A stretch of DNA of 64,000 nucleotides from contig AP026073.1 of the NCBI GenBank assembly GCA_024349765.1, positions 4,650,001 to 4,714,000 on the forward strand, read 5' to 3'. Every line of letters begins with the position of its first letter. Positions within the stretch are counted from its first letter, which is position 1. Position numbers and translations under genes: made by a program. Under the pieces are notes generated by a model. It did not search any database. It was not told the origin of the DNA and saw nothing but the letters and a program-made list of their open reading frames with translations. Shown here piece after piece: positions 8,653 to 64,000 of the stretch. Origin of the DNA: Streptomyces nigrescens (lineage in GTDB: Bacteria > Actinomycetota > Actinomycetes > Streptomycetales > Streptomycetaceae).

Positions 8653-8835
8653 GACGGCTCCTGTGGGGTCTGCGGGCCCGCTCTCCGGGTTCCGGGGGCC
8701 TGACGCCCGGTCCGCAGGGTCATTGTACGAGAAGCGTCGTAGTTTGACACCTGCCGTAGTACGGTGGTTATCGTACGAGCGCGGGGCCGGTCCGGCTCCC
8801 GTCCTTCCCGGCACACCCAGGCACAGGAGCCCGCC
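8653..8835. promoter_or_regulatory. Divergent arsR/OYE promoter with repeated operator-like elements
   Basis: TTGTACGAG (8723-8731) and a matching ATCGTACGAG (8770-8779) flank a TTGACA -35-like box at 8744-8749, with TTATCG about 18 bp downstream as a possible -10. The two GTACGAG copies bracket the OYE promoter, where an ArsR dimer could block RNA polymerase. This is position-based inference. Confidence 0.5.
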
Positions 8836-9939
8836 GTGAGCGCACTGTTCGAGCCCATCACCCTTCGCTCGCTGACCATCCCGAACCGCCTCTGGATGGC
8901 GCCCATGTGCCAGTACTCCGCGGCTCCCGAGGGCCCCGAGGAAGGGGCGCCCAACGACTGGCACTTCCAGCACCTGGCCGCGCGGGCCACCGGCGGCACC
9001 GGGCTGATCCTCACGGAGGCGACCGCGGTGCGCCCCGACGGCCGGATCAGCCCGTACGACCTCGGGCTGTGGAACGACACCCAGACCGAGGCCTTCCGGC
9101 GCATCACCGCCTTCCTCAAGGCCCAGGGCACCACCCCCGGCGTCCAGATCGCCCACGCCGGACGCAAGGCATCCACCGAGCGCACCTGGGTCAACCGCGG
9201 CGGCCCGATCCTGCCCGGTCAGCGGCACGGCTGGGAGCCGGTGGGGCCGAGCCCGCTGCCGTTCGACGAGGGGTTCACCACGCCGGCGGAGCTGTCCGTC
9301 GCGCAGATCCAGGAACTGGTCGGGCAGTTCGGGGCGACCGCGCGCCGGGCGCTGGCGGCCGGCTTCGAGGTGGCCGAGATCCACGGCGCGCACGGCTACC
9401 TGATCAACCAGTTCCTCTCCCCCTTCACCAACCGGCGCACCGACGCCTACGGCGGCTCGTACGAGAACCGGACGCGGTTCGCGCTGGAGGTCGTGGACGC
9501 CGTGCGGGCGGAGTGGCCGGACGAGCTGCCGGTCTTCTTCCGGATCTCGGCGACCGACTGGCTCACCGAGGACGCGAGCGACGACCGCACGGGCTGGACG
9601 GCCGACGACACCGTGCGCTTCGCCCGGGACCTGCGGGAGCACGGCGTCGACCTGCTGGACACCTCCACCGGTGGCAACGCGCCGGACGCGAAGATCACCG
9701 CCGGGCCGGGCTACCAGGTGCCGTTCGCCGAGCGCGTCAAGAAGGAGACCGGCCTGGCGGTGGGCGCCGTCGGACTGATCACCGAGGCGCGGCAGGCCGA
9801 GAAGATCGTCGCGGACGGCCAGGCGGACGCCGTGCTGCTCGGCCGGGAGCTGCTGCGCTCCCCCAGCTTCGCGCAGCACGCGGCGCGGGAGCTGGGCGCC
9901 GAGGTCCGGGGGCCGCAGCCGTACCACCGCGCCGTCTGA
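8836..9939 (+). CDS. Old Yellow Enzyme (YqjM-like NADH:flavin oxidoreductase)
   Basis: FMN-dependent ene-reductase reducing activated C=C bonds with NAD(P)H. 367 aa TIM barrel. Cys25 in MAPMCQYSA is the redox-tuning cysteine typical of the YqjM/thermophilic-like subclass. QIAHAGRK and EIHGAHGYL carry the substrate-binding His and flavin-contact residues, followed by FLSPFTNRRTDAYGGS. The C-terminal LGRELL region closes the barrel. Start GTG 8836 with CAGGAG 6 nt upstream is preferred to an earlier in-frame ATG at 8764, which lies in the promoter. Divergent from, and probably controlled by, the ArsR protein. Confidence 0.93.
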   Translation: MSALFEPITLRSLTIPNRLWMAPMCQYSAAPEGPEEGAPNDWHFQHLAARATGGTGLILTEATAVRPDGRISPYDLGLWNDTQTEAFRRITAFLKAQGTTPGVQIAHAGRKASTERTWVNRGGPILPGQRHGWEPVGPSPLPFDEGFTTPAELSVAQIQELVGQFGATARRALAAGFEVAEIHGAHGYLINQFLSPFTNRRTDAYGGSYENRTRFALEVVDAVRAEWPDELPVFFRISATDWLTEDASDDRTGWTADDTVRFARDLREHGVDLLDTSTGGNAPDAKITAGPGYQVPFAERVKKETGLAVGAVGLITEARQAEKIVADGQADAVLLGRELLRSPSFAQHAARELGAEVRGPQPYHRAV

Positions 9940-10009
9940 AGCCGGTCCGAAGCCCTCGGACGGCGGTCTGCGGCACGCCGTCGCACGCCGTCCGACCTGC
10001 GCGGACGCG

Positions 10010-10085: not shown

Positions 10086-11171
10086 ATGACTGACGTACTA
10101 CTCGCGGTGGGCACCCGCAAAGGGCTCTTCATCGGCCGGCGACGGCGCGGCGCATGGGAGTTGAGCGGTCCGCATTTTCCCTCGCAGGCGGTGTACTCCC
10201 TCGGGATCGACACCCGCCGGGCGACACCCCGGCTGCTGGCCGGTGCCGACAGCGCCCACTGGGGCCCGTCGGTGTTCCACTCCGACGACCTGGGCGAGAG
10301 CTGGCAGGAGCCCGCCCGCCCCGCGGTCAAGTACCCGAAAGACACCGGGACTTCACTGGAGCGGGTGTGGCAGCTGCATCCGGCGGGCCCGGCCGCCCCG
10401 GACGTGGTGTACGCCGGCACCGAGCCCGGCGGGCTGTTCCGCTCCGAGGACTGCGGCGAGACGTTCGAGCTGGTCCGGGCGCTGTGGGAGCACCCGAGCC
10501 GTGAGCAGTGGGTGCCGGGCGGCGGCGGGCTGGCGGTCCATACGGTGGTCACCGACCCGCGGGACCCCGACGCGGTCACCGTCGCGGTGTCCACGGCCGG
10601 GGTGTTCCGCACCCTGGACGGCGGCGCCAGCTGGGCCCCGTCCAACAAGGGCGTCAAGGCGGTCTTCCTGCCGGACCAGCATCCGGAGTTCGGACAGTGC
10701 GTCCACAAGATCGCCCAGGACCCGGTCGACCGCGACCGGCTCTATCTGCAGAACCACTGGGGCGTCTACCGCAGCGACGACGCGGGCGCGCAGTGGACGG
10801 ACATCGGCGCCGGGCTGCCCTCCGACTTCGGCTTCGCGGTGGCCGCGCATCCGCACCGCGGCGAGGTCGCCTACCTCTTCCCCATCACGGCCGACATCGA
10901 CCGGGTGCCCGCCGAGCACCGCTGCCGGGTCTACCGCACCTCCGACGCCGGCGGCAGCTGGGAGGCGCTGAGCCACGGCCTCCCCGAGGAGGACCATTAC
11001 GGCACGGTGCTCCGCGACGCCCTCTCCGTCGACGACGCCGATCCCGCGGGGGTGTATTTCGGCAATCGCAACGGCGAGTTGTACGCCAGCGCGGACGACG
11101 GCGACAGCTGGCGGCAGCTCGCCTCCCATCTGCCGGACGTGCTGTGCGTCCGGGCGGCTGCGGTGGCGTGA
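10086..11171 (+). CDS. BNR/sialidase-repeat beta-propeller protein
   Basis: 361 aa with repeated Asp-box (BNR) motifs of the S-x-D-x-G-x-T/S-W type: HSDDLGESW, RSEDCGETF, RTLDGGASW, RSDDAGAQW, RTSDAGGSW and ASADDGDSW. They are spread through the protein and predict a six- to seven-bladed propeller. No signal peptide is visible, so it is probably cytoplasmic. Related actinobacterial proteins are called WD40/YVTN/BNR-like or glycosyl-hydrolase-like, without demonstrated enzymatic function. No sialidase catalytic triad is apparent. ATG 10086 has GGAGG at 10073-10077, inside a long hairpin. Monocistronic by position. Confidence 0.88.
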   Translation: MTDVLLAVGTRKGLFIGRRRRGAWELSGPHFPSQAVYSLGIDTRRATPRLLAGADSAHWGPSVFHSDDLGESWQEPARPAVKYPKDTGTSLERVWQLHPAGPAAPDVVYAGTEPGGLFRSEDCGETFELVRALWEHPSREQWVPGGGGLAVHTVVTDPRDPDAVTVAVSTAGVFRTLDGGASWAPSNKGVKAVFLPDQHPEFGQCVHKIAQDPVDRDRLYLQNHWGVYRSDDAGAQWTDIGAGLPSDFGFAVAAHPHRGEVAYLFPITADIDRVPAEHRCRVYRTSDAGGSWEALSHGLPEEDHYGTVLRDALSVDDADPAGVYFGNRNGELYASADDGDSWRQLASHLPDVLCVRAAAVA

Positions 11172-11355
11172 GGAGAGAGGTGGCCCGGGCAAGGGGGTGA
11201 GCGGTGACGCGATCGCACTTACCGGAGGAAGAACGGCACGGCGCCCTGCGGCAGTTGGGGTGCTCCGGGTGGGGACCGTGCGCGGCCGGCCGGACCGGGT
11301 CCGTCGAAGGACAGGGAATTGAAGCGGAAGGCGCCGCGGCCAGTAGGGTGATCCC

Positions 11356-12033
11356 GTGGCTGCACGACCTCTTCAAGACATCGTCGAACCAGGCTGGGCC
11401 AAAGCGCTGGAGCCCGTCGCCGACCGGATCGCCGCGATGGGCGACTTCCTGCGGGCGGAGATCGCCCAGGGGCGTACCTATCTACCGGCCGGCAACAACG
11501 TGCTGCGCGCCTTCCAGCAGCCGTTCGACGAGGTACGGGTGCTCATCGTCGGACAGGACCCCTACCCCACCCCGGGGCATGCGGTCGGGCTCAGCTTCTC
11601 GGTGGCGCCGGACGTCCGTCCGCTGCCCGGGAGCCTGGAGAACATCTTCCGCGAGCTGCACTCCGACCTCGGCCTGCCCCGGCCGTCGAACGGCGATCTG
11701 ACGCCCTGGACGCGCCAGGGCGTCCTGCTGCTGAACAGAGCGCTGACGACGGCGCCGCGCAAGCCCGCAGCCCACCGCGGCAAGGGCTGGGAAGAGGTCA
11801 CCGAGCAGGCCATCCGCGCGCTGGTGGCCCGCGGCCGTCCGCTGGTGTCGATCCTGTGGGGGCGCGACGCACGGAACCTTCGCCCGCTGCTGGGCGACCT
11901 GCCGGCCGTCGAGTCCGCGCACCCCTCCCCCATGTCCGCCGACCGGGGCTTCTTCGGCTCCCGGCCGTTCAGCCGGGCGAACGACCTGTTGGTCCGGCAG
12001 GGCGCGGCGCCCGTCGACTGGAGGCTGCCCTGA
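11356..12033 (+). CDS. ung: Uracil-DNA glycosylase (family 1)
   Basis: Base-excision-repair enzyme removing uracil from DNA in the cytoplasm. 225 aa, the family 1 length. The water-activating motif GQDPYP begins at residue about 66, and the minor-groove loop HPSPMS begins at residue about 189. The uracil-binding region (LLLNRALTT) and Phe/Asn contacts are in place. GTG start at 11356; the 184-bp interval before it presumably carries the promoter, and I see nothing else in it. The next gene follows after 23 bp, so co-transcription is possible. Confidence 0.96.
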
Positions 12034-57784: not shown

Positions 57785-57861
57785 GCGCCCCGCGACCCGC
57801 CGGGTCGCGGTCCGGGCGGCGATGAAACACGATGAGAACTCCAGCCAGAGGAGGTCCGCCC

Positions 57862-58389
57862 GTGTCTGCTCCGGACATCCCCTCCCGGGCGCCCGCGCGA
57901 GCCGTACTGCCGGAGCGCGGCCCCGAGCCGGTGAGGATCACGCTGACGGTGAACGGCGTCGACCGCGCGGTGGAGGTCGAGCCGCGCGTCAGCCTTCTGG
58001 ACGCGCTGCGCGAACGCCTGGACCTGACGGGCGCGAAGAAGGGCTGTGACCAGGGCACCTGCGGGGCCTGCACGGTATGGGTCGACGGGCGCCGGGTGCT
58101 GGCCTGCCTGACCCTGGCGATCACCTGCGAGGGGCGCGAGGTCACCACCATCGAGGGCCTGGCCGAGGGCGATGAGCTGCACGCCATGCAGAGCGCGTTC
58201 ATCGAGCAGGACGCGTTCCAGTGCGGCTACTGCACCCCGGGCCAGATCATGTCCGCGGTGGCACTGCTCAAGGAGGGCCACGCCTCGGACGACCGCGAGA
58301 TCGCCGAGTGGATGAGCGGCAACATCTGCCGCTGCGCCGCCTACCCCCACATCCGGGCCGCCATCCGCACGGTCCGTGACCGAGCCTGA
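57862..58389 (+). CDS. 2Fe-2S subunit of the second molybdenum hydroxylase (PaoA-like)
   Basis: 175 aa. Both [2Fe-2S] domains: KKGCDQGTCGACTVWVDG, and FQCGYCTPGQIMSA with MSGNICRCAAYP. A 35-residue Pro/Arg-rich N-terminal tail lacks a twin-arginine signal. GTG 57862 with GAGGAGG 7 nt upstream is preferred to ATG 57832. First gene of the second, plus-strand cassette. Confidence 0.94.
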   Translation: MSAPDIPSRAPARAVLPERGPEPVRITLTVNGVDRAVEVEPRVSLLDALRERLDLTGAKKGCDQGTCGACTVWVDGRRVLACLTLAITCEGREVTTIEGLAEGDELHAMQSAFIEQDAFQCGYCTPGQIMSAVALLKEGHASDDREIAEWMSGNICRCAAYPHIRAAIRTVRDRA

Positions 58390-58400
58390 GGAGATTCGCC

Positions 58401-59396
58401 GTGCGGCCCATCAGCTACTCCCGCGCCACGGCCGTCGCCGACGCGGTCGCCGCCGTCGCCGCCGACCCCACCAGCGACTTCCTGGCCGGCGGCACCACCG
58501 AGGTCGATCTGCTGCGGCAGAACGTCTTGCTGCCGCGCCGGCTCGTGGACATCAACGACCTGCCGCTCACCGGGATCGAGGACCGGCCCGACGGCGGCCT
58601 GTACATCGGTGCGCTGGCCCGTATGAGCGAGGTGGCCGAGGCCCCCGCCGTACGGGAGCGCTTCCCCATGGTGGCCGAGGCGCTGGTGCTCGGGGCGTCC
58701 GCCCAGCTCCGGCATATGGCCAGCATGGGCGGCAACATGATGCAACGGGTGCGCTGCGGCTACTTCCGCGACGCGTCGTCGCCGTGCAACAAGCGCGATC
58801 CGGGCAGCGGCTGCGGTGCCCTGGACGGGTTCAACCGCGGCCATGCCGTCCTCGGCGTCAGCGAGCACTGCATCGCCACCCACCCGTCAGACGTCGCCGT
58901 CCCGCTGGTGGCCCTGGACGCCCGCATCCACACCGAGGGGCCGCACGGCCGGCAGGTCCACGCCCTGGACGACTTCTTCCTGCTGCCGGGTGCCACACCG
59001 CATCTGGAGCATCCGCTGGAGCACGGTGAGCTGGTGGTGGGCATCGAGGTGCCCGGTCTGGCCATGGCCCGGTCCTCGTGCTACCTGAAGGTGCGCGACC
59101 GGGAGTCGTACGAGTTCGCGCTGACGTCCGTGGCGGCCGCGGTGGATCTGGCGGACGGGGTGATCCGCGACGTACGGCTGGCGCTGGGCGGGGTGGCCAC
59201 GAAGCCCTGGCGGGCCCGCCGTGCGGAGGAGCTGCTGCGCGGCGCGCCCGCCGACATCGGGGCCTTCCGGCGGGCCGCCCGCGAGGAGCTGGCCGCCGCC
59301 CGCACCACGCCGCTCAACGCCTTCAAGGCCGAGCTGGCCCGGCGGACCGTGGTCCGCGCGCTGGCGACCCTCACCGGCACGGAGCACGCGTCATGA
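58401..59396 (+). CDS. FAD-binding subunit of the second molybdenum hydroxylase (PaoB-like)
   Basis: 331 aa. FAD loop LAGGTTEVDLLRQ, second segment QLRHMASMGGNMMQRVRCGYF, and the extra Cys set RCGYFRDASSPCNKRDPGSGC as in [4Fe-4S]-containing PaoB. GTG 58401 has GAGGAG 7 nt upstream. Its TGA overlaps the large-subunit ATG. Confidence 0.93.
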   Translation: MRPISYSRATAVADAVAAVAADPTSDFLAGGTTEVDLLRQNVLLPRRLVDINDLPLTGIEDRPDGGLYIGALARMSEVAEAPAVRERFPMVAEALVLGASAQLRHMASMGGNMMQRVRCGYFRDASSPCNKRDPGSGCGALDGFNRGHAVLGVSEHCIATHPSDVAVPLVALDARIHTEGPHGRQVHALDDFFLLPGATPHLEHPLEHGELVVGIEVPGLAMARSSCYLKVRDRESYEFALTSVAAAVDLADGVIRDVRLALGGVATKPWRARRAEELLRGAPADIGAFRRAAREELAAARTTPLNAFKAELARRTVVRALATLTGTEHAS

Positions 59397-61633
59397 CCAC
59401 GGCCCCGGCCGTCGGCCGCCCCGTCGACCGGGTCGACGGCCGGCACAAGGTCACCGGCGGCGCGCACTACTCCGCGGACGTCCGCCCGACCGATCGTGCC
59501 CACGCCGTCCTGGTCGGCGCGCGGGTGCCGAGCGGCCGGGTCACCGGCATCGACACCGACGAGGCCCGGCAGGCCGGCGGGGTGCTCGCGATCCTCACGC
59601 ACGAGAACCTGCCCGGCATCGCCACGCAGCCCCCGCTGCTGCCCTCGCTCGCCGGTATGCCCGCGCCCGGGCAGACCTTCTTCCCGCTCCAGGACGAGGT
59701 CGTCCACTACAGCGGGCAACCGGTCGCCGTGGTGGTCGCCGACACCCTGGAGCGCGCCCAGCACGCGGCCGCGCTGGTCCGCGTCACGTACCAGGAGACG
59801 CCCTCGGTCACCACCGTCGCCCAGGGGCGGGACGACGCCTACGTACCGGACGCGATCTTCGGCGGTTTCGTCCCGGGCCGGAGCGTGCGCGGCGATGTCG
59901 AGGCCGGGCTGGCCGCGGCGGACGTGCGGATCGACGCCACGTACACCTACGCCGCGAACCACCACAACCCCATCGAGCCGGCCGCCACCACCGCCGTCTG
60001 GGACGGCGACCAACTGACCCTGTACGACGCCACGCAGGGGGTGGCGGCCACCCAGCTGACGGTGGCGGCGCTGCTCGGCCTGTCCCCCTCCAAGGTGCGT
60101 GTGCTCTCCCACTTCGTCGGCGGCAGTTTCGGCTGCAAGGCCATGATCTGGGCGCACCCCGCGCTGGCCGCGCTCGCCGCCCGGCACGTCGGACGTCCCG
60201 TCAAGCTGTCGCTGACCCGTGAGCAGATGTTCACCTCGGTCGGCCACCGGGAGGAGCAGGAGCAGCGGATCGAGCTGGGCGCGGACAAGGAGGGGCGGCT
60301 CGTCGCGCTGCGGCACCACAAGCTCTCCCCCACCTCGCCCTTCGACGACTGGGCCGAGCCCTCGCTGGGCGTCGCCTCGCAGCTCTACGCCTGCGCCCAC
60401 TACGAGGGCGTCTACCGGCTGTTCCGCGCCAACACCATGACGCCGACCTTCATGCGGGCGCCCGGCGAGGCGTCCGGCATGTTCGCCCTCGAATGCACGA
60501 TGGACGACCTCGCCCACCAACTGGGCATCGACCCCGTCGAACTGCGCCTGCGCAACTACTCCGAGACCGACCCGACCACCAAAAACCCCTGGTCCAGCAC
60601 GGGACTCAAGGAGTGCTACGCACGCGGCGCGGAACGCTTCGGCTGGCACCGGCGCCGCCCCGCGCCGCGCTCGCACCGCGACGGCGACTGGCTGATCGGC
60701 TACGGCATGGCCGCCGCCGGCTATCCCGTCTACGGTCCGAACAACCCGCAGCGGGCCCGGGCCCGGCTGTACGCCGACGGTACGGCCGTCGTGCAGGCCG
60801 CGACCCCCGACTTCGGCACCGGGGTGGCCACGGTGATGACCCAGGTGGCCGCCGATGCCCTCGGTCTCCCGTGGGAGCGCTGCCGCTTCGAGGGCGGTGA
60901 CACGGCGCTGCCGGGCATCGCCGCCGCGGTCGGCTCCGCGGGCGCGGGGATGATCAGCGCCGCCGTCCACACCGCCGCCGCCCGCCTCCGCGACCAGTTG
61001 GTGGCGCAGGCCGTCGCCGACTCCCAGTCCCCGCTGCACGGCGCCGATCCGGCGGCGGTCACCGTACGGGACGGCCGGATGATGCTGCGCGACGCGCCCG
61101 CGACCGGCGAGACCTACGGCGACCTGCTGCACCGCAACTTCCTGCCGGACGTCGAGGCCTCCGGCGCCTGGTCCCCGTCCCCGGAGTCCCACCACTACGG
61201 GATGATGACCTTCGGCGCCCAGTTCGCCGAGGTCGCCGTCGACCCCGACCTCGGCGTCGTCCGGGTCCGCCGCATGGTCGGTGCCTTCGCCCCCGGCCGC
61301 GTCCTCAACCCCAAGACGGCCCGCAGCCAGCTGATGGGCGGCATGCTCTGGGGCCTTGGCCAGGCCCTCCTGGAAGCCAACTACATGGACCCCCGCCGCG
61401 GCCGCTGGGTCGCCTCCGGCCTGGGCGACTACCTCGTCCCGGTCAACGCCGACGCCCCCGACATCGAGGTCGAACTCGTCGACGTCACCGACGACATCGT
61501 CAACCCGCTCGGCGTCAAGGGCGTCGGCGAGATCGGCCAGGTCGGCGCCGCGGCCGCCCTCGCCAACGCCCTCCACCACGCGACGGGCCGGCGGGTGCGG
61601 AAGCTGCCGGTGACGATCGAGGACCTGCTGTGA
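59393..61633 (+). CDS. Molybdopterin-binding subunit of the second molybdenum hydroxylase (PaoC-like)
   Basis: 746-aa catalytic subunit. Motifs: SHFVGGSFGCKAMI (Moco pocket, here with a Cys in place of Ser), FMRAPGEASGMFALECTMDDLA, TPDFGTGVATVMTQVAADALG, and the active-site Glu in GVKGVGEIGQVGAAAALANA. Coupled to the FAD gene by ATGA. No XdhC gene follows; the chaperone of the first cassette may serve both. A 25-bp tandem duplication spans its stop codon. Confidence 0.93.
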   Translation: MTTAPAVGRPVDRVDGRHKVTGGAHYSADVRPTDRAHAVLVGARVPSGRVTGIDTDEARQAGGVLAILTHENLPGIATQPPLLPSLAGMPAPGQTFFPLQDEVVHYSGQPVAVVVADTLERAQHAAALVRVTYQETPSVTTVAQGRDDAYVPDAIFGGFVPGRSVRGDVEAGLAAADVRIDATYTYAANHHNPIEPAATTAVWDGDQLTLYDATQGVAATQLTVAALLGLSPSKVRVLSHFVGGSFGCKAMIWAHPALAALAARHVGRPVKLSLTREQMFTSVGHREEQEQRIELGADKEGRLVALRHHKLSPTSPFDDWAEPSLGVASQLYACAHYEGVYRLFRANTMTPTFMRAPGEASGMFALECTMDDLAHQLGIDPVELRLRNYSETDPTTKNPWSSTGLKECYARGAERFGWHRRRPAPRSHRDGDWLIGYGMAAAGYPVYGPNNPQRARARLYADGTAVVQAATPDFGTGVATVMTQVAADALGLPWERCRFEGGDTALPGIAAAVGSAGAGMISAAVHTAAARLRDQLVAQAVADSQSPLHGADPAAVTVRDGRMMLRDAPATGETYGDLLHRNFLPDVEASGAWSPSPESHHYGMMTFGAQFAEVAVDPDLGVVRVRRMVGAFAPGRVLNPKTARSQLMGGMLWGLGQALLEANYMDPRRGRWVASGLGDYLVPVNADAPDIEVELVDVTDDIVNPLGVKGVGEIGQVGAAAALANALHHATGRRVRKLPVTIEDLL

Positions 61634-61692: not shown

Positions 61693-62034
61693 TCAGACCG
61701 TGGTCACCGGTGCGATCAGTTCCTCGTCGGACCTCGGCCGGACGACGGTGGCCTGAGTGGTGATCAGGTCTCCGATCTCCAATGACCCGCTTCCGGAGAC
61801 GTCGACGTGGACGCGGAGTCCGTAGGCGCCCGTCGGGTCGAGGTCGGGCACGTCCACGCGGAAGGGCAGCCGGCCGTGCGGGGCGAGGGGGACATCCGTC
61901 TGGACCTGGGCGGCCACCACGGTGGAGGGGGCATCGGCGAGGGACACGTCGCGGACCTCCACCAGGACCCTGGCGGCCCGGGTGACCGGCGTATCGGCGG
62001 GCAGCGACACGATGCCCCGCACGGTGCGGTTCAT
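61693..62034 (-). CDS. YbaY-like beta-sandwich protein, third gene of the ATP-grasp operon
   Basis: 113 aa matching the YbaY/type III secretion chaperone-like pattern (VRGIVSLPADTPVTRAARVLVEVRDVSLADAPSTVVAAQ, then LPFRVDVPDLDPTGAYGLRVHVDVSGSG). Unlike E. coli YbaY it lacks a signal peptide and lipobox, so it is cytosolic. ATG 62034 overlaps the ATP-grasp stop (ATGA). It could bind or hold the product of the ATP-grasp enzyme; inference only. Confidence 0.8.
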   Translation of the reverse strand: MNRTVRGIVSLPADTPVTRAARVLVEVRDVSLADAPSTVVAAQVQTDVPLAPHGRLPFRVDVPDLDPTGAYGLRVHVDVSGSGSLEIGDLITTQATVVRPRSDEELIAPVTTV

Positions 62035-63035
62035 GCCGTCCTCCCGACCAGAGGCCGCGACGCCACCGCTCGCGCCCGGTCGGGTGCCTCGCCGCGGGCA
62101 TCGGTCCGGGCCAGGAGCCCGGCGACCTCCGCGCTGATCGGCAGACCGGTCCGGTGCTCCACGAACAGCCATTGCCCCGCCGGATTGACCTCGAAGAAGA
62201 CGTAACTCCCGTCCGGGCGCCGGCGCAGATCGACGGCGCCGTAGACCAGTCCGAGCCGGCGCAGGAAGCGGAGCAGCGTGTCGGTGAGGGCCGGCGGGAG
62301 GGTCACCGGCCGTACCCGGGCCTCGTCGACCACCGTCCTCATGTCGACGGGATAGCGGGTCGCCGAGGCGTCGATCTCGGCGGCGAAGACGCGCTCCCCC
62401 ACCACCGTCACCCGCAGATCGGCGCCGGGCACGAACTCCTGGAAGATCACCGGGGCGTAGCGGACCGCGTCGAGGTGCGCCAGGTCCTGCGGCCGCACGA
62501 GCCGGGTCTCCCGCCACGCCTCCGCATGGGCGAGGAAGGATTTGAAGACCGTGCGCCCGACGCCGACGTCCTCGATGAACCGGCGCGCCCGCTCCGGCTG
62601 GTTGGTGACCAGGGTGCGCGGCAGCACGAGGCCCACCCGGCGCGCCACCTCCCACTGGTACGGCTTGTGGTGGGCGACGGCGTCGAGCGACGGCGGATTG
62701 ATCCAGGTGCAGTCGAGCGCGTGCAACATGCCGTACAGCGCCTGGCTGGTCTCGCTCGCCGCGAATCCCTGGTCCCGGGCCGTGCACAGCGTCGGATCGA
62801 CGGTGAAGGGACGCACCCTTCGCCACCACGCGACGCGACACCCCGCCAACGAGGCTTCCGCCGTGGGCGTGGTCAGGGTGCAGACCGGCTGGCTGCCGTC
62901 CGAAGAGTCGAAGTTGATCACTCCGTGGGCGGGAAAGTCCGCCAGGTCGAACCTGGCCACCTCCCGACCGGCGGCCTCCAGCCGGCCGATGACGTCCAGC
63001 GTGTGGTCCTCGTCGTAGGAGATGACGAGGATCAT
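62031..63035 (-). CDS. MvdD/RimK-like ATP-grasp ligase
   Basis: 334 aa. N-terminal pre-ATP-grasp domain (MILVISYDEDHTLDVIGRLE, then VARFDLADFP) like graspetide maturases MvdC/MvdD. ATP-grasp core with FKSFLAHAEAWRETRLV, FQEFVPGADLRVTVVGERVFAAEID and the Mg-binding FFEVNPAGQWLFVE. These enzymes activate side-chain carboxylates of Asp/Glu and join them to Thr, Ser or Lys. It overlaps both neighbours by ATGA junctions. No small precursor gene with the usual leader is visible inside the window; the upstream metallopeptidase carries an odd tail that could be the substrate. Confidence 0.88.
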   Translation of the reverse strand: MILVISYDEDHTLDVIGRLEAAGREVARFDLADFPAHGVINFDSSDGSQPVCTLTTPTAEASLAGCRVAWWRRVRPFTVDPTLCTARDQGFAASETSQALYGMLHALDCTWINPPSLDAVAHHKPYQWEVARRVGLVLPRTLVTNQPERARRFIEDVGVGRTVFKSFLAHAEAWRETRLVRPQDLAHLDAVRYAPVIFQEFVPGADLRVTVVGERVFAAEIDASATRYPVDMRTVVDEARVRPVTLPPALTDTLLRFLRRLGLVYGAVDLRRRPDGSYVFFEVNPAGQWLFVEHRTGLPISAEVAGLLARTDARGEAPDRARAVASRPLVGRTA

Positions 63036-64000
63036 CGCAGCTGCCCGGCGCTTTCACCGCTGCCGAACAGCGGGCCCAGCTGGGTCACCAGGCTCTGGTG
63101 ACTGGCGGCCACGGCGGCGAGATCGTGCTGGAGGGAACCGAGCAGCTGGGCGAGCTGGCGTACTTGCTCGGCCAGCCCGTCGGACTGCCCGGCCAGCGCG
63201 GGCGACTGATGCGGCGTGGCGAGCACGAAGGGGCTGGCCGCGGCCGGGCTCATCAGTTCTTGGTGCGGTTGCTTGGGGGGCATGTCGTGGACCGGGTCCT
63301 TCGCCTGCTCCTTCAGCGTGAAGTCGGTGAGGGGGTCCTTGCCGATCTCCTTGGCCGTGACGGGGGCGTTCGGGTACAGCGCCTGGACGCCGGCGAGATC
63401 GCCCTGGGACAACCCGGTCCGTTGCCCCATCACCACACCGGGCGGGAGCGGCTGCTTCGCGGTGATGGTCGGCCGAGTGCTGTCGATGGCGAAGGCCCGC
63501 GGCGGATAGTGCATGATCGAGCCGTAGTCGTACGGTCCGATGTCGTCGCCGTCCGAGATCTGCTGCAGGAAGTTGTGCTGCTGTGCCGGGTCGATGTTCG
63601 AGAAGTCGATCGTGACGAACTGGTCGCGGTCCTCCCGGCTTTGTTCGTGCCAGAGCCCCACCGTGTGACCGATCTCGTGGATGGCATTTCCGGCACTGCA
63701 CGAATCGCCCAGCGTGATCCTCTGCATACCCCCTCGCCGGCCCACCGAGGAGGAACATCCGTCACCCGGAACGAAACGCACGAAGTCGGGGAACTGGGCC
63801 GCGTTGTCGGCGGTCCGTGACTCGAAGGTGATCCGGGTGTGGGTCCTCCAGTGGGCAAGCGCGTCGAAGACCCGGTCTGTGTTGGGCAGAGCGGGATCGA
63901 TCTCGAACGGAACGGTCGCGTTCGGCCAGCGGAATTGCTGCCCGGTGATCCCCACCGCCCGGAACATCAGCTCATGACCGCCCGCGGCCTCGGCCTGCTG
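63032..64000 (-). CDS. Astacin-type (M12A) zinc metallopeptidase with K/D/E-rich tail (5' end beyond window)
   Basis: The frame is open to the window edge, so the N-terminus is missing. Zinc site HEIGHTVGLWHEQSRED (HExxHxxGxxH) and Met-turn YDYGSIMHYP are intact, giving an active astacin fold. The catalytic domain ends near GDLAGVQALYPNA. A C-terminal tail of about 110 residues follows with TAKEIGKDPLTDFTLKEQ, AKDPVHDMPPKQ and PFVLATPHQ, then a helical coiled-coil-like stretch (EQVRQLAQLLGSLQHDLAAV). No signal peptide is visible in the part available. Stop overlaps the ATP-grasp ATG. Confidence 0.9.
   Translation of the reverse strand, partial: QQAEAAGGHELMFRAVGITGQQFRWPNATVPFEIDPALPNTDRVFDALAHWRTHTRITFESRTADNAAQFPDFVRFVPGDGCSSSVGRRGGMQRITLGDSCSAGNAIHEIGHTVGLWHEQSREDRDQFVTIDFSNIDPAQQHNFLQQISDGDDIGPYDYGSIMHYPPRAFAIDSTRPTITAKQPLPPGVVMGQRTGLSQGDLAGVQALYPNAPVTAKEIGKDPLTDFTLKEQAKDPVHDMPPKQPHQELMSPAAASPFVLATPHQSPALAGQSDGLAEQVRQLAQLLGSLQHDLAAVAASHQSLVTQLGPLFGSGESAGQLR

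What the first reader, a model, noticed from the sequence alone, without database searches (positions are those of the whole stretch)
61693..64000. Astacin metallopeptidase, MvdD-like ATP-grasp ligase and YbaY-like protein in a tightly coupled operon
Three minus-strand genes joined by ATGA overlaps pair a zinc protease with a graspetide-type ligase and a cytosolic YbaY-fold protein. No conventional precursor gene is in view. The protease tail has alternating Lys, Asp, Glu and Thr (KEIGKDPLTDF, LKEQAKDPVHD) followed by PFVLATPHQ, which could be a built-in substrate for ester or amide cross-linking. Motifs and gene order are seen directly; the modification idea is inference.
Basis: partly seen in the sequence, partly recalled or inferred. 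Interest (0 to 1): 0.78.

Follow-up and report, generated by a model that had tools for sequence, protein, structure and literature searches.

The report
Zinc proteases carrying built-in graspetide precursor tails
In some soil bacteria a protein-cutting enzyme ends in a repetitive tail that looks like the missing raw material for a neighbouring enzyme that ties protein side chains into rings, so the protease itself is probably the thing being modified.

Summary
In detail: three minus-strand genes with ATGA overlaps encode an astacin, a microviridin-type ATP-grasp ligase and a YscW/YbaY-like protein. The astacin (402 aa complete) starts 240 bases beyond the window.

In 17 of 17 loci found by the ligase (Streptomyces, Acidobacteria, Pseudomonadota) an astacin lies directly upstream. 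In 16 of 17 its frame ends in a variable K-x-P-x-x-D repeat array, a PFVL motif and a helix; one copy is frame-broken.

Two further ligases sit beside a different peptidase family (M43) whose added tail has different Thr/Lys/Asp-rich repeats but the same PFVL[AS]TPH motif. Homologous proteases without the ligase lack the tail: 3 of 3 astacins and 7 of 7 M43s. No separate small precursor was found.

PF-h-h resembles known graspetide leader motifs (microviridin PFFARFL), but here it follows the core. I read this as a protease-embedded graspetide precursor with a natural follower, probably explaining the precursor-less 'branch 7' ATP-grasp loci of Makarova et al. 2022. Ring chemistry, connectivity and fate of the tail are inferred, not shown.

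The parts
63032..64000 (-). Astacin (M12A) zinc metallopeptidase with C-terminal precursor tail; the gene continues 240 bases beyond the window (ATG at G000:C1:4714240; 402 aa)
63374..63931 (-). Astacin catalytic domain
   Evidence: PF01400 residues 24-209 of P0001, E 1.2e-46
63647..63679 (-). Zinc-binding motif HEIGHTVGLWH; 10 of its 11 residues invariant in 13 of 13 rows (the T varies)
63257..63358 (-). Predicted core: 3 K-x-P-x-x-[DE] units with Thr/Glu between (TAKEIGKDPLTDFTLKEQAKDPVHDMPPKQPHQE)
63206..63232 (-). Predicted recognition (follower) motif PFVLATPHQ
   Evidence: PFVL invariant in 15 of 15 rows of A3; shared with M43 carriers
63062..63178 (-). C-terminal helix after the motif (model residues 275-313)
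   Evidence: AlphaFold2 model, low to moderate confidence
62031..63035 (-). Graspetide-type ATP-grasp ligase (MvdD-like pre-ATP-grasp plus RimK-like domain)
61693..62034 (-). YscW/YbaY-like 113 aa protein; putative partner
   Evidence: PF09619 3.1e-7; conserved downstream of the ligase

Best explanation
The C-terminal tail of the protease is itself the graspetide precursor. The ATP-grasp ligase docks on the conserved PFVL motif (plus helix), which lies after the core as a natural follower, and joins Lys and/or Thr side chains to Asp/Glu side chains within the K-x-P-x-x-D repeats, losing water for each ring. The YscW-like protein is a partner or chaperone in the astacin loci. The modified product is a cytosolic, latent astacin (FxGDI-type prosegment, no evident signal peptide) bearing a ring-stapled tail. 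After activation the tail either stays on as a stapled extension or is cut off as ring-bearing peptides. Shown here: operon, conserved tail, co-occurrence of tail and ligase, sharing of the motif by two peptidase families, predicted microviridin-type ligase fold. Inferred: docking on PFVL, the chemistry, connectivity, and the fate of the tail.
For: (1) Ligase-first search: 17 of 17 loci have an astacin upstream; in 16 of 17 the tail with PFVL is in frame. (2) Astacin-first search: 10 carriers in 199 + 180 genomes; 7 have tail and adjacent ligase, 3 have neither, none mixed (G000 and G295). Distance alone does not explain it: the tailed astacin of G1562 is 58% identical to the window's, the tail-less ones 54-61%. 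(3) M43 peptidases beside ligases of the same clade carry APFVLSTPHHS / APFVLATPHHS after other Thr/Lys/Asp-rich repeats; 7 of 7 other plasmid M43 homologues lack both tail motif and ligase. (4) Core varies in repeat number and sequence while PFVL stays, as in graspetide precursors (PMC8939145 section 5). (5) Ligase model best matches MdnC bound to its precursor peptide, TMq 0.80; profile best hit MdnC, 167 bits. (6) Precedents: corallotide, five Lys-Asp isopeptide rings on a 22 kDa precursor made by a TIGR04187 ligase (PMC13097080); a leader engineered to the C-terminus still works (PMC13003496). TIGR04187 is also the best NCBIfam hit here, below its cut-off.
Against: No mass-spectrometric or structural evidence of rings. 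Five of 26 members of the wider ligase clade (L099, L100, L104-L106) show no convincing PF[VI]L carrier within 5 kb; the two hits found are inside a 231-codon ORF that looks like a regulator and in a remote short frame. In Streptomyces the repeats are degenerate and few (1-7 per tail in 14 tails). Astacin and M43 are both metzincins, so the two protease families are not wholly independent folds. No YscW gene was detected beside the M43 loci. The tail model is low confidence and shows no docking. Genome searches scored only 7-12 candidates per genome in the large sets, so absences there are soft.
Confidence: 0.74

Rival explanations
1. The ligase acts on the protease tail but as a RimK-like amino-acid ligase (adding residues to side chains or the C-terminus), not as a macrocyclase.
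For: RimK-like domain PF08443; RimK structures also match the model, more weakly.
Against: PF21068 MvdD pre-ATP-grasp domain; MdnC, CdnC, AMdnB, PruB and PsnB outrank RimK in the sequence-profile and fold searches; repeats pairing Lys/Thr with Asp resemble graspetide cores.
Confidence: 0.08
2. The tail is only a disordered linker or docking segment and the ligase modifies another protein (the YscW-like protein or an unlinked precursor), with the protease maturing that product, much as Makarova et al. proposed for branches 7 and 8.
For: Makarova et al. suggested that the peptidases release peptides from proteins encoded elsewhere (PMC8939145, passages); the tail is predicted disordered.
Against: In the protease-first searches the tail is present exactly when the ligase is, in two protease families; PFVL is conserved beyond what a linker needs; no separate precursor with a PF-type motif among 51 short ORFs in +/-3 kb (none in four further loci either).
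Confidence: 0.12
3. The cassette is cargo of the phage-tail-like particle encoded just upstream, and the tail is a loading signal.
For: In the window genome the astacin overlaps the last gene of a cluster with sheath and baseplate matches; the astacins lack an evident signal peptide.
Against: Of the 11 Streptomyces loci only S. lydicus (L045) and S. endophytica (L046) keep any of that cluster in the sequence held upstream, which is short in L047 and L050; none of the five non-Streptomyces astacin loci tested does, though L055 and L056 are short upstream too.
Confidence: 0.05

Closest known systems
Microviridin / MvdD-MdnC type graspetide biosynthesis
   Same: Ligase domain architecture and predicted fold (PF21068 plus RimK-like; best match MdnC with bound MdnA); PF-h-h recognition motif beside Thr/Lys/Asp-rich cores
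   Different: Precursor is the tail of a 402 aa zinc protease; motif lies C-terminal to the core; ligase forms a separate, well-supported clade
Branch 7 ATP-grasp loci of Makarova et al. 2022 (PMC8939145)
   Same: ATP-grasp with a YscW homologue, peptidases of several unrelated families (said of branches 7 and 8), no small precursor
   Different: They reported no precursor and proposed that the peptidases cut other proteins; here the peptidase C-terminus is the candidate precursor. Identity of the two groups was not tested
Corallotide (PMC13097080)
   Same: Large precursor with repeated Lys...Asp units; ligase in TIGR04187
   Different: Corallotide has KxxxD, a stand-alone precursor and 2OG hydroxylation; here K-x-P-x-x-D, fused to a protease
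Fuscimiditide ligase ThfB with repositioned leader (PMC13003496)
   Same: Recognition element C-terminal to the core
   Different: ThfB's was engineered; this would be natural
LegP-type bacterial astacins
   Same: Catalytic domain matches NCBIfam LegP at 267 bits
   Different: Below the equivalog cut-off of 300; added repeat tail and ligase

Membership tests
Graspetide synthetases (MvdC/MvdD/TIGR04187 type ATP-grasp) | MvdD-like pre-ATP-grasp plus RimK-like ATP-grasp domains | tested here: met
   PF21068 37.9 bits (cut-off 27), PF08443 25.7 bits (cut-off 21); fold match MdnC
Graspetide synthetases (MvdC/MvdD/TIGR04187 type ATP-grasp) | Score above the NCBIfam subfamily or equivalog cut-off (TIGR04187, 04184, 04185) | tested here: not met
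   249.8 of 350, 176.2 of 475, 168.8 of 425; so not filed in any of these three NCBIfam models
Graspetide synthetases (MvdC/MvdD/TIGR04187 type ATP-grasp) | Candidate active-site residues conserved (K124, K165, E282, N284; their roles recalled) | tested here: met
   Invariant in 13 of 13 rows of A2
Graspetide (RiPP) | Precursor with a conserved recognition motif and a variable Thr/Ser/Lys-Asp/Glu core beside the ligase | tested here: met
   motif order core-then-recognition, the reverse of the usual one
Graspetide (RiPP) | Side-chain ester or amide rings in the product | not testable with these tools
   needs mass spectrometry or NMR
Astacin family M12A | HExxHxxGxxH zinc motif, Met-turn, FxGDI-type prosegment | tested here: met
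   FEGDI or VEGDI in 12 of 12 full-length proteins (VEGDI in the window protein); FXGDI described for animal astacins in PMC9848320 (passages)
LegP equivalog (NF045530) | Score above the cut-off of 300 bits | tested here: not met
   266.7 bits for the window part of the protein; the 80 N-terminal residues outside the window were not in that scan
YscW/YbaY family PF09619 | Pfam match above the gathering score | tested here: met
   31.1 bits, cut-off 22.6

The most novel reading that the evidence does not exclude
A class of follower-directed, protease-embedded graspetides: latent zinc proteases of two families carry the same C-terminal PFVL recognition module and repeat cores, on which a dedicated clade of ATP-grasp ligases staples multiple Lys/Thr-Asp rings, giving a natural covalently stapled enzyme. 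It would identify the missing precursors of the peptidase-linked branch 7 ATP-grasp loci, and the stapled tail could regulate, protect or be released by its own protease.
Probability: 0.6. Interest if true: 0.85.

Novelty: new variant of a known kind. Interest (0 to 1): 0.72.

Why it matters
A 2022 survey of ATP-grasp loci could not predict precursors for the peptidase-linked branches 7 and 8 (PMC8939145, passages). If the peptidase tails are the precursors, a puzzle becomes a one-experiment test (intact mass of a co-expressed protein), and graspetide chemistry extends from small peptides to native enzymes, with a natural C-terminal recognition element of the kind that was engineered in PMC13003496. 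The PFVL[AS]TPH motif also gives a search handle for further carriers.

Tried and rejected
Phage-tail or injection-system link: the cluster upstream of the window genes is real (PHROGs tail sheath 4.8e-9, baseplate wedge 4.5e-41; Pfam Baseplate_J 2.8e-12) but among the relatives tested is kept only in the S. lydicus and S. endophytica loci, so it was dropped as an explanation of the cassette. Viral contigs: one scan with A2 found no relative. Phage records: two remote ATP-grasp hits only. PADLOC: no hit for the three proteins. Tail profile in 398 Pseudomonadota genomes: only the query genome, with at most 9 candidates scored per genome. Tail of the window protein against plasmids: no match. 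A weak tail hit in G294:C319 was a coiled-coil false positive. Relatives of G1340: no further clade ligase in 16 other genomes. Other members of the ligase clade (L099, L100, L104-L106) showed no convincing PF[VI]L carrier; one search had filtered out the low-GC frames of L111, so one search repeated this without a filter. The astacin model (mean pLDDT 59, pTM 0.44) gave no information on tail docking; its best structural matches include astacins, meprins and a hatching enzyme. Papers: searches found no description of a protease-tail graspetide (listings, plus the passages cited); the strings KEIRKDPI, KEVRKDPI, PFVLATPH and PFVLAG occur in no held paper.

Full report
Observation. The window is bases 4650001-4714000 of contig C1 of a 9.3 Mb genome. 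The ligase of Streptomyces endophytica is 98% identical to this one over the best segment, so the host is a Streptomyces (inference). The astacin starts 240 bases outside the window and is 402 aa long. Pfam assigns astacin, MvdD pre-ATP-grasp plus RimK-like ATP-grasp, and YscW.

Which ligase. The best NCBIfam hit is TIGR04187 at 249.8 bits, below the cut-off of 350; MvdD and MvdC models match more weakly. A profile of 13 relatives finds MdnC (5ig9), MdnB, CdnC, AMdnB, PruB (9bou) and PsnB among solved structures, ahead of RimK (some names). The AlphaFold2 model (mean pLDDT 82.3, pTM 0.80) matches MdnC bound to its precursor MdnA best (TMq 0.80). It is therefore predicted to have a microviridin-type macrocyclase fold.

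Distribution. In the order, 200 of 293 genomes have some match at 1e-20, but only six have an orthologue of 71% identity or more, the window's included; the other listed matches are at 43% or less. A scan of genome contigs with the six-row alignment gave 17 relatives: 11 Streptomyces, one Acidobacteria MAG, one Thiobacillus MAG, three Polaromonas and one Pseudomonadota MAG. In 17 of 17 the gene ending at or within about 20 bases of the ligase start (about 50 in the broken L046) is an astacin; in 16 of 17 its frame ends in the repeat-PFVL-helix tail, and in L046 the motif lies in another frame. A YscW-like gene follows the ligase in all 11 Streptomyces loci and in the five other loci tested (L055, L056, L057, L059, L060; L058 was left out of that call).

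Anatomy of the tail. The tail follows the catalytic domain directly. In 15 aligned tails PFVL and three Lys are invariant. In the six proteobacterial and acidobacterial tails the core is mostly a clean repeat, T-h-K-E-x-x-K-D-P-h-x-D; in 14 Streptomyces tails it decays to K-x-P-x-x-[DE] with 1-7 copies (K, P and D/E at those places are fixed by the search pattern, the T, K, E and D before and between are not). Counts exceed shuffled cores 55 to 2.5, and Lys is nearly absent after the motif. The model predicts the repeats and motif as disordered (pLDDT below 50 over residues 203-276) and a helix at 275-313. All 12 full-length astacins examined keep FEGDI or VEGDI, close to the latency motif FXGDI of astacin prosegments (PMC9848320, passages), and none shows a hydrophobic N-terminal stretch. 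So the enzyme is probably made as a latent cytosolic zymogen, where the ligase can reach it (inference).

Does the tail go with the ligase? Searching by the catalytic domain instead, 7 of 199 Streptomyces and 3 of 180 genomes of the Polaromonas family have the astacin. Seven of these ten have a PFVL, PYIL or PYVL tail and the ligase directly downstream; three (G1695, G1620, G1551) have other C-termini and no ligase in the stretch held, which for the first two reaches only about 0.4 kb past the gene (G000 and G295). Whole-genome search settles that: these three hold only remote ligases (158 bits or less, on other contigs or more than 0.5 Mb from the astacin), against 448 bits or more in the four tailed genomes searched. 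Distance alone does not explain the split: the tailed astacin of G1562 is 58% identical to the window's, the tail-less ones 54-61%.

A second protease family. A Burkholderia stagnalis replicon (L094) and an Actinomycetota genome outside the window's class (G1340, L103) have ligases of the same clade (44% identity to the Polaromonas ligase for L094, 342 bits against A2 for G1340, 59% to each other). Directly upstream is a Peptidase_M43 (PF05572) with some 150-210 more residues after the zinc motif than its tail-less homologues: T/D repeats in one, TxKFRDDPVG-like repeats in the other, then VAPFVLSTPHHS or PAPFVLATPHHS and a helix-like end. The seven other plasmid records with this M43 domain have no such motif and no ligase in the flanking 4 kb or so; six end within about 130 residues of the zinc motif and the seventh is a large CUB protein, read to its end. 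An acidobacterial ligase of the wider clade (L082/L114) lies beside a 375 aa protein of K/D repeats ending in GPFILTTNWPY. Recognition motif fixed, core free to change, is the pattern of graspetide precursors: Makarova et al. describe a 'Phhx(1,2)h' leader motif and PFFARFL in microviridins (PMC8939145, section 5, read in full). Here the motif comes after the core.

Tree. In a 67-row tree the astacin-type ligases are one group (97/89), joined by L104 (100/97) and then by the M43-type (95/87); a 26-row clade with L082, L099, L100, L105 and L106 is supported 100/99, apart from the microviridin ligases (100/98) and the Streptomyces paralogues. L082 and L104 are long branches, so their places are unsure. 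For L099, L100 and L104-L106 no convincing PF[VI]L carrier was seen within 5 kb; L105 and L106 instead follow 155-165 aa proteins with a conserved Thr/Ser/Asp-rich C-terminus. So the follower arrangement is not universal in the clade.

Mechanism. The best-supported reading is that the ligase binds PFVL and staples the repeats with lactams or lactones. Precedents: corallotide has five Lys-Asp isopeptide rings on a 22 kDa precursor, made by a TIGR04187 ligase (PMC13097080; abstract, sections 7 and 10, passages); a leader moved to the C-terminus still directs ThfB (PMC13003496, abstract and passages); ThfB also cyclises whole proteins (PMC12291112, abstract). The YscW-like protein may act as a partner, as MirC does for rosaritide (PMC13097080). 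Whether the stapled tail stays or is released is open. Rings, connectivity and docking are inference.

Relation to the literature. Makarova et al. report for branch 7 a YscW homologue in many loci, for branches 7 and 8 peptidases of several unrelated families and no predictable precursor, and propose that the peptidases cut other proteins (PMC8939145, passages). The loci here fit that description, but I could not map them onto that tree. Group 32 of PMC13097080 has 'diverse families of neighboring proteases' and may overlap. Searches found no paper that names protease tails as the precursor; supplements were not tried.

Limits. Large genome searches scored only 7-12 candidates per genome, so their absences are soft. 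The two protease families are both metzincins.

Verdict. Observation confirmed; interpretation supported by comparison, chemistry untested. A new variant of graspetide biosynthesis, of high interest because it turns the missing-precursor problem into a simple test.

Noticed in passing
G000:C1:4714237-4733532 (just right of the window; L004, L007, L008): Phage-tail-like contractile cluster (sheath, baseplate J, baseplate wedge, hub-like protein, fibre-like repeat protein); its last gene overlaps the astacin by ATGA. Also in S. lydicus (L041/L045) and partly in S. endophytica (L046).
   Followed up: partly
G000:C1:4725297-4729226: 1309-codon ORF inside the tail-like cluster with an AHH-family HNH nuclease domain near its C-terminus (PF14412, 4.6e-12).
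   Followed up: no
L046 (Streptomyces endophytica) about 8773-10004: Frame of the astacin is broken in the tail; PFVLATPHQ lies in a different frame from the catalytic domain.
   Followed up: no
L114 (G892, Acidobacteriota) 10474-11601: 375 aa protein with many DPK repeats ending in GPFILTTNWPY beside a ligase of the wider clade and a 636 aa protein that I take, from its N-terminus and from memory, for a radical-SAM-like enzyme; possible non-protease carrier.
   Followed up: partly
L109 9932-10429 and L110 9830-10297 of the reverse complement (G1312, G1491): 155-165 aa proteins upstream of clade ligases with a conserved Thr/Ser/Asp-rich C-terminus (TFTFAQTRSHNSSDDGVHCDSLD-like); possible large precursors.
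   Followed up: no
L118, L119 (G1695, G1620): Homologous Streptomyces astacins without the ligase carry repeated W-W-D-G-x-x-W-G-P units in place of the PFVL tail.
   Followed up: no
window 57832-61633 (+): Three-subunit molybdenum hydroxylase-like operon (2Fe-2S, FAD, Mo subunits; assignment recalled from sequence, not tested) converging on the cassette.
   Followed up: no
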